Origin: Streptomyces luteogriseus
Lineage (GTDB): Bacteria; Actinomycetota; Actinomycetes; Streptomycetales; Streptomycetaceae
DNA length: 64,000 nucleotides
NCBI RefSeq assembly: GCF_014205055.1
Contig: NZ_JACHMS010000001.1
Span: forward strand, 1,612,001 to 1,676,000
Reading direction: 5' to 3'
Positions 49,661 through 53,332 of this stretch are shown here, piece after piece (positions within the stretch are counted from its first letter, which is position 1; every line of letters begins with the position of its first letter). The notes under the pieces are model-generated. The model made no database searches and was not told where the DNA came from. It saw nothing but the letters and a program-made list of their open reading frames with translations. The translations under genes were made by a program, and so were the position numbers.

Positions 49661-49869
49661 CGATCACACCTCCTGCTCGTCACACAGCCGACGGCGGCAG
49701 CAACAGGCCGCCGCGCGATTCGCCCCCACCTTAGAGGCGTGCGCCCCTCGGGCGCCACGGAATTAAACCCACCCTCACGGGGCCGTCCGGGACGGCTCCC
49801 CAAAGCCCCCCGTGCACGACGCGCACGTGATGGCCGGACGTGGTGCACTGGAATCACGGGAGGTGCAGC

Positions 49870-50271
49870 ATGTCAGGTCGCGCAGGCAAGACCCGCAATA
49901 TCTTTCTGGTGTGGCTGATCTGGCCGCTGATCACGCTGGGCATCTACCACCTGGTCTGGTACTACAAAGTGAATCGCGAGGCCCGGGAATTCGATTCACG
50001 CATCGAGGTCAATCCGGCGCTGGCGGTGCTGGCCGTCACGGTCGGCTGGCTGGTGATCGTTCCGCCCTTCGTTTCGGTCTACAACACCGGTCTGCGCATT
50101 GCGCGCATGCAGCAGTCGGCCGGGATGGAACGGAGCTGCAATCCCTGGATCGGCTTCATCCTCTACATCGTGGCCGTGCTGTTCCCGCTCTACTACCAGC
50201 ACGAGCTGAACCAGATCTGGGCTCGGTACCAGAACGCTGAAGAGGGCGAGCAGGTGCCGCTCGCGGCCTGA
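49870..50271 (+). CDS. DUF4234 membrane protein
   Basis: The 133-residue protein begins with the DUF4234 pattern (NIFLVWLIWPLITLGIYHLV, then YYKVNREAREFD) and has three membrane helices: about residues 11-32, 47-70 and 100-117. The function is unknown. GGGAGGTGC upstream fixes the ATG at 49870. Some codons are less GC-rich than the neighbours. Convergent with the CBM2 fusion gene. Confidence 0.83.
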   Translation: MSGRAGKTRNIFLVWLIWPLITLGIYHLVWYYKVNREAREFDSRIEVNPALAVLAVTVGWLVIVPPFVSVYNTGLRIARMQQSAGMERSCNPWIGFILYIVAVLFPLYYQHELNQIWARYQNAEEGEQVPLAA

Positions 50272-50283
50272 CGAGAGGGTTCG

Positions 50284-51777
50284 TCAACTGCCCTTCGCGC
50301 AGGCGTGGCCGTTCACCTCGAAGTCGTACGGCGGGGAGTTCTTGCCGTGCCAGGAGGCGAGGAAGCCGAAGGCCAGGTCGCCGCCCGCGGGGACCGACTT
50401 GTTGTAGTCGGCGGCGGTGGCGGTGACGCGGGAGCCGTCCTGGGAGACGGAGGCGTCCCACATCTGGCCGACCTTCTGGCCGTCCCGGAAGGACCAGGCG
50501 ACGCGCCAGGAGTCGAGGGCCTCGGCGCTGGTGACGGTGACGGTGGCCTGGAAGCCGTCGGGCCACTGGTTGACCAGGTCGTACTCGACCCGGCAGACGG
50601 GGTCCCCGCTCTCGTCGGGTTCGGTGCGCTCGGTGGACGAGGAGGTGCCCTGCGGTTCGGTGTGGCGGTTCCTGCCCTCCGGCTTGCCGGACTTCTCCGG
50701 CTGCTTCGTGCCCTGGGTGGTCCGGTCGGCCGGCTTGGAGGTGGCGGGCGGCAGGGACGGGGCGGACGGCAGGGGCGGAGCGGGGTCGGCCACCGGCTGG
50801 CGGTCGGCGCCACCGGATGCGCCGAGGTCGTCGCCTCCGCCGCCGAAGGGCATCAGGGAGACGCCGAGAGCCAGCACGGAGACCAGGACCGCCGCGACGA
50901 GGAGGCCGTTGCGGGCGACGCGTGCCTTCTGCTCGCCGTCCTCCGGTTCACCGGCCGCCTTGTCCGCCGAGCCGGGGCGTCCCGCAGCGAGCCGCACCTC
51001 TGCGGCGCGGCGGCGGCGCTCCAGATAGGCGAGGCCGCCCCAGCCGATCACTCCGCCGGCCAGCGCCCCGGGCAGGGCGCCGCCGTGCAGGCGCAGGCAG
51101 GCGGCGGCCTCGGCGCACTGCACGCAGGTGGCGAGGTGCCGTGAGAGGTCGCCGGGGGTCTCGGCCGCGGAGGAGCGGGTGACGGCGTCCAGCAGCCGGG
51201 CGTAGCTGCGGCACCGAGCGTCCATCGGCGTGTCGAGGTGGTTGCGGTGGCAGCGGTCCCGGAACAGGGTGCGCACCTGCTGGAGTTCCTCGGCGGCGCC
51301 GTCCGGGTCGAGGCCCAGGCGGCGGGCGACCACGGACAGCGGCAGCGCCTCCACCTCGGTGAACCACAGCAGTTCCGCGTCCGCCTGCTGCAGATCGCGC
51401 AGGCCGCGCAGCGCGAGCGGGCGCTGCAGGGGCGGGCCGGAGTATCGGGCGGCTTTGTCCGAGTTGAGCCACAGGCGCAGGTCGGGGTCGAGTTTGTGGC
51501 CCTGCCCCTCCTCCTCCCAGGCCGCTGCCGTGGTGCGTACGGAGGTCAGCAGCAGAGGTATGCGGGGCAGCCGGGCCGGGCGGCGGGCGGTGCCGCGGAC
51601 CGCGCCGGTCTCGGCGGCGCGGGCCTCGCGTATGCCGTGTGCGAACGCCTCGCGGCCGAGCTGTGCGGCGGCCGTGGAACCGGAGGTGCACAGGTCCGCG
51701 TACGCGAGGACCGCGTCCCAGCACTCGGAGAACAGCGCGGCCTCGGTGGCGTCCTGAGGGGTCGGCAGGTCGGGCAT
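50284..51777 (-). CDS. Sigma-factor-like / zinc anti-sigma / membrane / CBM2 fusion
   Basis: The 497-residue protein combines parts that are normally separate. Residues about 10-190 are helical and resemble ECF sigma regions 2 and 4 (LRDLQQADAELLWFTEVEAL, ARRLGLDPDGAAEELQQVR). Residues about 195-235 carry a ZAS-type zinc motif (H-x3-C-x2-C in RHLATCVQCAEA). A membrane helix lies near 290-315 (NGLLVAAVLVSVLALGVSLM), then a Pro/Ser/Thr stalk. Residues about 395-497 form a family 2 carbohydrate-binding module with the usual bracketing Cys pair and Trp residues. The likely topology is N-terminus inside and CBM outside. GGAG before the ATG at 51777 fixes the start. Role inferred: sensing of insoluble polysaccharide. 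Confidence 0.75.
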   Translation of the reverse strand: MPDLPTPQDATEAALFSECWDAVLAYADLCTSGSTAAAQLGREAFAHGIREARAAETGAVRGTARRPARLPRIPLLLTSVRTTAAAWEEEGQGHKLDPDLRLWLNSDKAARYSGPPLQRPLALRGLRDLQQADAELLWFTEVEALPLSVVARRLGLDPDGAAEELQQVRTLFRDRCHRNHLDTPMDARCRSYARLLDAVTRSSAAETPGDLSRHLATCVQCAEAAACLRLHGGALPGALAGGVIGWGGLAYLERRRRAAEVRLAAGRPGSADKAAGEPEDGEQKARVARNGLLVAAVLVSVLALGVSLMPFGGGGDDLGASGGADRQPVADPAPPLPSAPSLPPATSKPADRTTQGTKQPEKSGKPEGRNRHTEPQGTSSSTERTEPDESGDPVCRVEYDLVNQWPDGFQATVTVTSAEALDSWRVAWSFRDGQKVGQMWDASVSQDGSRVTATAADYNKSVPAGGDLAFGFLASWHGKNSPPYDFEVNGHACAKGS

Positions 51778-51911
51778 GAGTCTCCTGCATCCACAAGCGA
51801 GGTCAACTCACCACATCGGCATTGGAGTTGGGGGGAACCTCGCGGCAGGGGGAGAGCTTTTCACGCCTCCCACACAACTGACAAGCGCCCTGTTCAGATA
51901 TCACGACAGGA

Positions 51912-52012: not shown

Positions 52013-53332
52013 TCAGACGGCGGTGGGTTCGTCGGCCGGGAGGCTGTCCATGAAGGAGCTCACCGAGAAGACCGCGTTGCCGGCGCCGGGCGGGCCGTAG
52101 CCGGGGGGCGAGGAGAGACCGAAGTCCTCCATGGTCTGCCGGTAGGCCTGGAGCAGACGGATGTGGTACTCCAGCGGCGCGCCCTGCGGGTTGGCCTTGC
52201 CGAGCGGCGTCGTGGGCTCCGGGCACCAGGTGGTGAAGCGGGGCGTGATGCCGTGCGACATGAAGAAGCGCAGGCCCTCGGTGGTGGAGTCGATCGCCTC
52301 GTCGACCGTCTTGAAGCCGAACGGCTCCGCCATCTCGACGCCCGCGACGAAGTTGGGGATCACGTTGCGCGCCCCGAACACCTCCGCCGAGTCCAGGATC
52401 CGCTTGTGCCACACGTCCCGGCCGACGTACCGCTCCTTGCCCGGGCAGTACATCTTGAACAGGTACTCGTCCCACACCTCGTAGTTGGGGTGGTAGATCT
52501 GCACGCCGTAGTCCTTGAACCGCTGGACGTCGTCGCGCGGGAGGGCCTGGGCGACGACCTTGCCGATCCAGCGGCCCGGGAAGTGCTCCTCGATGGCCTT
52601 GGCGTACCGCCCGTAGAAGTCCGCCTCGTCCAGGCCCTGGACCTTCGACGTGATCGCTCCACCGGTGAGCGTGTACGCGGTGGACACCTTCGCGGTGTCG
52701 TACCTGTTGATGATCTCGAGCGCCTCGAGGACCTCGTCGACGTCCTTCACACCCGTGTACGGGCGGCCCGCCGCCTTGTGCTGGCGCCAGTTGTGGTTGA
52801 TGTCGCAGTACTGGCACTCCTCCTTGGCACCGAAGTACTGGCACACGCGGAACGCGGTCAGGTAGATCAGGTAACCCCACTGGATGGTCGGGGCGACCTC
52901 CATGACCGACTTCCCGTTGGCGAGGGTGTGCCGGTAGTACTCGGGCATCGGTGGCACACCGACGTCTGAGATCCGCTTGCCGTCGAGGTAGAGGCCGAGC
53001 ACGCCGTCGTCGTTCGCGGCGACGCGGTACGGCGAGGACGGGTTCACCCGGACCGAGACGACGGTGCGGCGCAGGTCGTAGGGGCCGCCGGTGAGGATGA
53101 TCTCCTCGGGCGGCCGGCGCAGCGCCGCCTCGCCCAGCTCGGGCAGGGTGCCGTGGTCGAAGGAGAAGATGAAGTACGACTTCGGCTTGACCTCGCCGCC
53201 CTCGTTGTCGCTGAGCGCGGACGGGTCGAAGGCGACGCCGCCGCGGAGCAGGTCCTCCTTGAAGACGGCTTCCCGCGGCACGTGCGGGAACCGCTCCATC
53301 AGATCCTCGACCAGCGCGGTACGGCTGCCCAT
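52013..53332 (-). CDS. Radical SAM protein with CX8CX2C cluster motif
   Basis: The 439-residue protein has its iron-sulfur ligands at C164, C173 and C176, a C-x8-C-x2-C spacing unlike the usual C-x3-C-x2-C. They follow an unusually long N-terminal domain of about 160 residues. TLTGGAITSKVQGLD is a likely GGE-like SAM-binding segment, and YHPNYEVWDEYLFKMYCPG and GVEMAEPFGF resemble later barrel strands. The ATG at 53332 has GGAGGAG upstream. The substrate is unknown; no peptide, cofactor or tRNA-modification partner is adjacent. Confidence 0.78.
   Translation of the reverse strand: MGSRTALVEDLMERFPHVPREAVFKEDLLRGGVAFDPSALSDNEGGEVKPKSYFIFSFDHGTLPELGEAALRRPPEEIILTGGPYDLRRTVVSVRVNPSSPYRVAANDDGVLGLYLDGKRISDVGVPPMPEYYRHTLANGKSVMEVAPTIQWGYLIYLTAFRVCQYFGAKEECQYCDINHNWRQHKAAGRPYTGVKDVDEVLEALEIINRYDTAKVSTAYTLTGGAITSKVQGLDEADFYGRYAKAIEEHFPGRWIGKVVAQALPRDDVQRFKDYGVQIYHPNYEVWDEYLFKMYCPGKERYVGRDVWHKRILDSAEVFGARNVIPNFVAGVEMAEPFGFKTVDEAIDSTTEGLRFFMSHGITPRFTTWCPEPTTPLGKANPQGAPLEYHIRLLQAYRQTMEDFGLSSPPGYGPPGAGNAVFSVSSFMDSLPADEPTAV

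What the first reader, a model, noticed from the sequence alone, without database searches (positions are those of the whole stretch)
50284..51777. One-polypeptide sigma-like / anti-sigma / membrane / cellulose-binding protein
A sigma-like helical part, a ZAS zinc motif, a membrane helix and an extracellular CBM2 occur in a single chain. In Clostridium thermocellum, RsgI-type anti-sigma factors with outside carbohydrate modules sense polysaccharide and release a separate sigma factor. Here both halves seem fused, which would make a self-contained sensor or a tethered regulator needing proteolysis. No glycosidase motif is present, so binding rather than cleavage is the job.
Basis: partly seen in the sequence, partly recalled or inferred. 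Interest (0 to 1): 0.72.

Follow-up and report, generated by a model that had tools for sequence, protein, structure and literature searches.

The report
Cellulose-binding membrane protein with pseudo-sigma domain
A Streptomyces membrane protein carries a cellulose/chitin-binding module outside the cell and, inside, a built-in anti-sigma zinc domain joined to a sigma-factor-shaped domain that has lost the residues a sigma factor needs, so it looks like a sugar sensor built around a sigma mimic rather than a working sigma factor.

Summary
Window 50284-51777 (-) encodes 497 aa: an ECF-sigma-shaped region (10-182), a ZAS zinc motif (C189-x24-H214-x3-C218-x2-C221), one strong membrane helix (~290-311), a Pro/Ser/Thr linker and a CBM2 (395-493). 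The sigma homology is real: all PDB sequence hits of the family profile, and the top 24 Foldseek hits, are sigma factors. The fusion as such is not new. ECF52 proteins (SCO4117 of S. coelicolor) have this plan, and this genome carries a separate, intact ECF52. What is unusual is that the window protein and its ricin-lectin paralogues are not ordinary sigma factors. They fail the ECF model (TIGR02937). The core-RNAP-binding Asp of region 2.2 is Asp in 30/30 ECF52 proteins and 0/35 of these; the basic charge of region 2.4 and of the -35 recognition helix is gone or reversed. The zinc ligands are invariant, and the domain is still constrained (about 80-90% identity, low dN/dS) in at least 74 named Streptomyces. 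I read it as a conserved pseudo-sigma/ZAS sensor of insoluble polysaccharide, probably acting by sigma mimicry or sequestration, not as a released sigma factor. That mechanism is inference. Novelty: new variant of a known kind.

The parts
50284..51777 (-). complete gene, 497 aa: pseudo-sigma / ZAS / TM / linker / CBM2
   Evidence: orthologues
51232..51777 (-). residues 1-182: ECF-sigma-shaped region (sigma2-like 10-89, linker 90-118, sigma4-like 119-182) with eroded RNAP- and DNA-contact residues
51082..51231 (-). residues 183-232: ZAS anti-sigma zinc domain, C189-x24-H214-x3-C218-x2-C221
51022..51081 (-). residues 233-252: conserved weakly hydrophobic, helix-broken segment (GALPGALAGGVIGWGGLAYL), shared with ECF52; probably not membrane-spanning
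   Evidence: 91% identity, dN/dS about 0.14; KD mean 1.24; broken helix in the low-confidence full-length model
50845..50910 (-). residues 290-311: membrane helix, basic flank (10 K/R against 7 D/E in 253-290) on the N-terminal side
50602..50844 (-). residues 312-392: Pro/Ser/Thr/Gly-rich linker evolving without detectable constraint
   Evidence: 45% identity, dN/dS about 1.1; composition
50299..50595 (-). residues 395-493: CBM2, with W405, W440, Y458 and the Cys395/Cys493 pair nearly invariant
51800..51832 (-). conserved upstream dyad CCAACTCC-N-GAGTTGA, roughly 20-55 bp before the ATG; its CAACTC and GAGTTG arms are identical in all 38 aligned loci
   Evidence: the same pattern with exact arms occurs at 3 other places in the genome, all inside coding sequence

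Best explanation
It is a vertically inherited Streptomyces branch of the ECF52 lineage. The anti-sigma zinc domain, membrane helix and outside polysaccharide module are kept, while the sigma domain has become a pseudo-sigma that keeps the fold but not the surfaces for core RNA polymerase and promoter DNA. Most likely working: the CBM2 docks the hypha to insoluble polysaccharide (cellulose or chitin); the signal crosses the single membrane helix, by tension or by regulated proteolysis as proposed for ECF52; and the cytoplasmic pseudo-sigma/ZAS unit changes state and acts on another sigma/anti-sigma pair, by mimicking a sigma factor (PhyR-like) or by freeing its ZAS to hold another ECF sigma. 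Shown here: ancestry, domain order, loss of sigma contact residues, retained zinc ligands, purifying selection. Inferred: outside location of the CBM, ligand, signal transfer, and the target of the mimic (the genome's intact ECF52 is the first candidate).
For: Sigma ancestry: family profile against own-genome ECFs prob 96, E 1e-9; orthologues alone prob 82, E 1e-5; against own ECF52 prob 98 across sigma, ZAS and the hydrophobic segment. With the ECF52 row left out, all 7 PDB hits up to E = 1 are sigma factors. AF2 pLDDT 81; top 24 Foldseek hits are sigma factors, sigma4 superposes at 1.3-1.6 A. Loss of function residues: region 2.2 Asp 30/30 in ECF52 and 14/15 in canonical ECFs, against 0/35 here; region 2.3 aromatic 30/30 (ECF52) against none; region 2.4 net charge +2.0 against -0.9; recognition helix +2.4 against -1.3; R167 30/30 against Q in 14/16. 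ZAS ligands kept. Not listed among 89 TIGR02937 hits in its genome, whereas the intact ECF52 scores 58.9 bits. Constraint: N-terminal identity to orthologues in G009/G007/G013 (92/84/82%) only a little below that of the true ECF52 in the same genomes (94/88/89%); dN/dS 0.16-0.19 in sigma2-like and ZAS parts. Ricin-lectin paralogues share the same N-terminal plan.
Against: No binding or transcription data. Residue loss was judged by alignment; a sigma with unusual contacts cannot be excluded, and even ECF52 lacks some canonical residues (Q42 is mostly A, S163 mostly V, R164 is L). One near-orthologue (L016, G003) has lost the whole ZAS yet keeps the pseudo-sigma, membrane helix and CBM, which argues that the ZAS is not always needed. 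The Foldseek E-values are modest (best 0.03). No partner was identified. dN/dS is a simple Nei-Gojobori estimate in a high-GC genome, so only the comparison between regions is meaningful.
Confidence: 0.5

Rival explanations
1. It is a working ECF52-type sigma factor with unusual contacts: the ZAS holds its own sigma domain until polysaccharide binding triggers proteolysis, and the freed sigma domain directs transcription.
For: Same domain order as SCO4117, for which truncation data support proteolytic release (PMC5826349, PMC8999054). Sigma2 and sigma4 folds retained. Strong constraint on the sigma2-like part.
Against: Loss of the region 2.2 Asp, region 2.3 aromatic, region 2.4 basic residues and the basic recognition helix in the orthologues, while 30/30 ECF52 proteins keep the Asp, the aromatic and R167. 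No TIGR02937 hit.
Confidence: 0.2
2. It is mainly a surface tether or adhesin: the CBM2 fixes hyphae to cellulose or chitin and the cytoplasmic part is an inherited anchor with little signalling role.
For: CBM2 with the three binding aromatics and the disulphide pair conserved; no partner identified; adjacent genes vary.
Against: The cytoplasmic half is the most conserved part (about 81-96% identity outside one loop, against 76% for the CBM2) and its zinc ligands are invariant in 75/75: the reverse of what a passive anchor predicts.
Confidence: 0.2
3. It acts with the neighbouring radical SAM protein (52013-53332), which lies just upstream on the same strand, in a joint pathway.
For: A radical SAM homologue is found upstream on the same strand in 80/80 named loci; the gene occurs only in genomes with the radical SAM gene (16 of 22 with it, 0 of 15 without; p about 6e-6 before phylogenetic correction).
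Against: In G022 the radical SAM gene is reduced to fragments while this gene is intact; 6 genomes have the radical SAM gene elsewhere without this one; the gene has its own conserved upstream element. Block inheritance explains the linkage.
Confidence: 0.1

Closest known systems
ECF52 sigma factors (SCO4117, Streptomyces coelicolor)
   Same: Sigma2-sigma4, ZAS zinc finger, TM, Pro-rich linker and carbohydrate module in one chain; 28% identity from residue 9 to 246 to this genome's ECF52, including the conserved segment after the ZAS
   Different: SCO4117 has an NPCBM-type module and a sigma domain recognised by TIGR02937 (PMC5826349); here a CBM2 and a sigma domain without the contact residues. 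This genome has both genes.
ECF53 group (C-terminal fusions with carbohydrate modules or hydrolases, PMC8999054, PMC10766802)
   Same: Predicted fused anti-sigma/TM/carbohydrate domains
   Different: Sequences not available here; group membership not tested
Ricin-lectin paralogues in Streptomyces (L031, L032 in this genome)
   Same: Same pseudo-sigma/ZAS and a lectin-type outside module; 35-41% identity
   Different: Ricin B lectin instead of CBM2; separate, well-supported clade
PhyR/NepR (Alphaproteobacteria) sigma factor mimicry
   Same: A degenerate ECF-like domain conserved without (inferred) sigma activity; PhyR and NepR-complex structures appear among the Foldseek hits
   Different: PhyR has a receiver domain and is soluble; no receiver here; mimicry is inferred only
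IutY (Pseudomonas putida) sigma/anti-sigma fusion
   Same: Membrane-bound anti-sigma fused to an ECF sigma, activated by proteolysis (PMC8999054)
   Different: Iron surface signalling, working sigma, no carbohydrate module
RsgI/SigI (Clostridium thermocellum)
   Different: Two separate proteins; no RsgI domain match here

Membership tests
ECF52 sigma factor | ECF sigma domain recognised by the standard model (TIGR02937) | tested here: not met
   Not among the 89 hits in its genome; the genome's ECF52 scores 58.9 bits against a cut-off of 42.9
ECF52 sigma factor | sigma2 and sigma4 fold / homology | tested here: met
ECF52 sigma factor | residues for core RNAP and promoter contact | tested here: not met
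ECF52 sigma factor | ZAS zinc finger following the sigma domain | tested here: met
   C-x24-H-x3-C-x2-C, 75/75
ECF52 sigma factor | transmembrane helix and Pro-rich extension | tested here: met
   hydropathy only, no dedicated topology predictor was available
ECF52 sigma factor | C-terminal carbohydrate-binding module | tested here: met
   CBM2 here, NPCBM in this genome's ECF52
ECF52 sigma factor | directs transcription from its own promoters | not testable with these tools
   needs biochemistry
CBM2 | PF00553 above cut-off, surface aromatics, terminal Cys pair | tested here: met
   97.8 bits against cut-off 24; W405, W440, Y458, C395, C493
RsgI-type anti-sigma factor | RsgI N-terminal domain and a separate SigI partner | tested here: not met
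   Pfam gives only CBM2; presence of a SigI gene was not searched for
PhyR-type sigma mimic | receiver domain fused to sigma-like domain | tested here: not met
   no receiver domain
PhyR-type sigma mimic | binds an anti-sigma factor in place of the sigma factor | not testable with these tools
   needs binding assays

The most novel reading that the evidence does not exclude
Streptomyces evolved a set of membrane-bound sigma mimics from ECF52 sigma factors: pseudo-sigma domains fused to their own anti-sigma domain and to outside lectin or cellulose-binding modules, which tune working ECF sigma factors (ECF52 first) in trans when hyphae touch insoluble polysaccharide. This would be a surface-sensing counterpart of PhyR, so far known from Alphaproteobacteria.
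Probability: 0.3. Interest if true: 0.72.

Novelty: new variant of a known kind. Interest (0 to 1): 0.45.

Why it matters
Automatic annotation calls these proteins either 'cellulose binding domain-containing protein' or, for relatives, 'sigma-70 family sigma factor'. If the sigma half is a mimic, counts of sigma factors that include these fusions are too high, and a group of receptors linking contact with plant or fungal polysaccharide to development or secondary metabolism has been overlooked. The family gives a graded series from working to pseudo-sigma with the anti-sigma part held constant, which makes it possible to test how a sigma/anti-sigma fusion turns into a mimic.

Tried and rejected
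(1) Direct Pfam/NCBIfam identification of the N-terminal half: no hit; only 11 of 35 family members touch Sigma70_r4_2 at E <= 1. (2) Two membrane helices, which would put the CBM inside: the 233-252 segment is below the usual hydrophobicity level (KD 1.24 against 2.41), is helix-broken in the low-confidence model, and is followed by RRRR. (3) The radical SAM gene as obligate partner: decayed in G022, present alone elsewhere. (4) Upstream dyad as a regulon signal: only 4 exact sites in the genome, the other 3 inside genes; GCTTGTCAGTTGTG is unique in the genome. (5) Upstream RNA structure: z -1.17, no Rfam family. (6) Full-length AF2: mean pLDDT 50, used only for rough secondary structure. (8) Published precedent for a pseudo-sigma with ricin or CBM2 modules: none in the held library, which lacks most subscription papers.

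Full report
What is there. The minus-strand ORF 50284-51777 encodes 497 residues with a good ribosome-binding site and a single plausible start. The host genome is 8.7 Mb in two contigs and the named orthologues are nearly all Streptomyces. Order: helical region 10-182; zinc motif C189-x24-H214-x3-C218-x2-C221; a conserved weakly hydrophobic segment 233-252; a basic stretch 253-290; a membrane helix of about 290-311; a Pro/Ser/Thr/Gly linker; CBM2 at 395-493 (E 5e-28).

Is the N-terminal half sigma-like? Pfam, NCBIfam and TIGR02937 do not see it. More sensitive tests do. Profile-profile comparison with 15 ECF sigma factors of the same genome gives probability 82 (orthologues only) and 96, E 1e-9 (orthologues plus paralogues, no ECF52 row). 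Against the ECF52 protein of the same genome it gives 98 over residues 10-250. A PDB profile search without the ECF52 row returns seven chains up to E = 1, all sigma factors. AF2 of residues 1-232 has pLDDT 81. Foldseek's first 24 PDB hits are all sigma factors, best E 0.034 and probability 0.98; sigma4 alone superposes at 1.3-1.6 A over about 50 residues. The global TM-scores are low (about 0.25), which I attribute to different domain orientation.

The kind is known. ECF52 sigma factors are defined as ECF sigma domain, zinc finger, TM, Pro-rich extension and carbohydrate-binding domain. SCO4117 is the studied member, and proteolytic release has been proposed (PMC5826349; PMC8999054). The genome has its own ECF52: a 672-residue ORF with a TIGR02937 hit of 58.9 bits and an NPCBM domain. 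ECF52 is found at high identity in most of the 37 Streptomyces genomes sampled.

What differs. Column by column, the 16 CBM2-type proteins and 19 ricin-type paralogues lack the region 2.2 Asp (Asp in 30/30 ECF52 and 14/15 canonical ECFs; 0/35 here) and the region 2.3 aromatic (Tyr in 30/30 ECF52; none here). Region 2.4 charge falls from +2.0 to -0.9. In the CBM2 type the recognition helix goes from +2.4 to -1.3, with Glu164 invariant where many canonical ECFs have Arg, and Gln for R167 in 14/16. That these positions contact the beta-prime clamp helices, the -10 element and the -35 element is established knowledge of ECF structures, not tested here. Hydrophobic core positions (L15, Y26, A27, L76, V80, L137, A151, L154, G155) are kept. 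The zinc ligands are invariant in ECF52, ricin and CBM2 groups alike, apart from L016, which lacks the ZAS region. The CBM2 and ricin groups are separate clades (support 1.0 and 0.91). Relatives in other replicons and genomes show a range: L222 (Streptomyces sp. NBC_01001 plasmid; by reading, a ricin-like C-terminus) keeps a more normal sigma part and is annotated as sigma-70 family, whereas L221 (S. cadmiisoli plasmid, CBM2-type, about 40%) is also eroded (read by eye).

It is not a decaying relic. The cytoplasmic half is more conserved than the CBM2 (about 81-96% apart from the variable loop 57-71, against 76%). dN/dS is 0.16-0.19 in the sigma2-like and ZAS parts, 0.39 in the sigma4-like part and about 1.1 in the linker (relative values only). 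Identity between the same genomes is only a few points below that of the true ECF52 in most pairs. In the CBM2, W405, W440, Y458 and the C395/C493 pair are nearly invariant. By CBM2a precedent (own knowledge) this is a flat face for crystalline cellulose or chitin, and the disulphide fits an outside location.

Surroundings. A radical SAM homologue (NF045502) lies upstream on the same strand in 80/80 named loci, and no sampled genome has the gene without at least remnants of it. In G022 it is in fragments while this gene is intact, and six genomes have it elsewhere without this gene. I treat the linkage as block inheritance. The gene has its own conserved upstream region: a dyad CAACTC/GAGTTG at nearly fixed spacing, identical in all 38 loci aligned, and GCTTGTCAGTTGTG further up, unique in the genome. 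Operator, promoter or RNA hairpin is unresolved.

Mechanism. Shown: ancestry, domain order, eroded sigma surfaces, retained zinc site, purifying selection, conserved CBM2 face. Inferred: CBM outside, polysaccharide ligand, signal through one helix, and sigma mimicry or sequestration acting on another sigma/anti-sigma pair. I put 0.5 on the pseudo-sigma sensor reading, 0.2 on a working unusual sigma and 0.2 on a tether.

Noticed in passing
window 51778-51890 (-): Conserved upstream region: dyad CCAACTCC...GAGTTGA with arms identical in all 38 aligned loci, and GCTTGTCAGTTGTG, unique in the genome. Function (operator, ECF-type promoter or hairpin) unknown.
   Followed up: partly
window 52013-53332 (-): Variant radical SAM protein (NF045502) just upstream on the same strand in 80/80 orthologous loci; fragmented in G022; present alone in six Streptomyces of the sample.
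   Followed up: partly
window 49840-50271 (+): DUF4234 membrane protein, convergent with the gene, found in only 3 of 80 orthologous loci: a recent local insertion or a loss elsewhere.
   Followed up: no
L016 (genome G003): Orthologue that has lost the whole ZAS region in frame but keeps pseudo-sigma, membrane helix and CBM2.
   Followed up: partly
L031, L032, L227 (same genome): Three further ECF52-like proteins with the eroded sigma part and a ricin-type C-terminal module (confirmed by Pfam in L031 and L032, by reading in L227).
   Followed up: partly
L222 (Streptomyces sp. NBC_01001 plasmid): Relative with an apparently less eroded sigma part and a ricin-like C-terminus, annotated as sigma-70 family sigma factor: a possible intermediate.
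   Followed up: no
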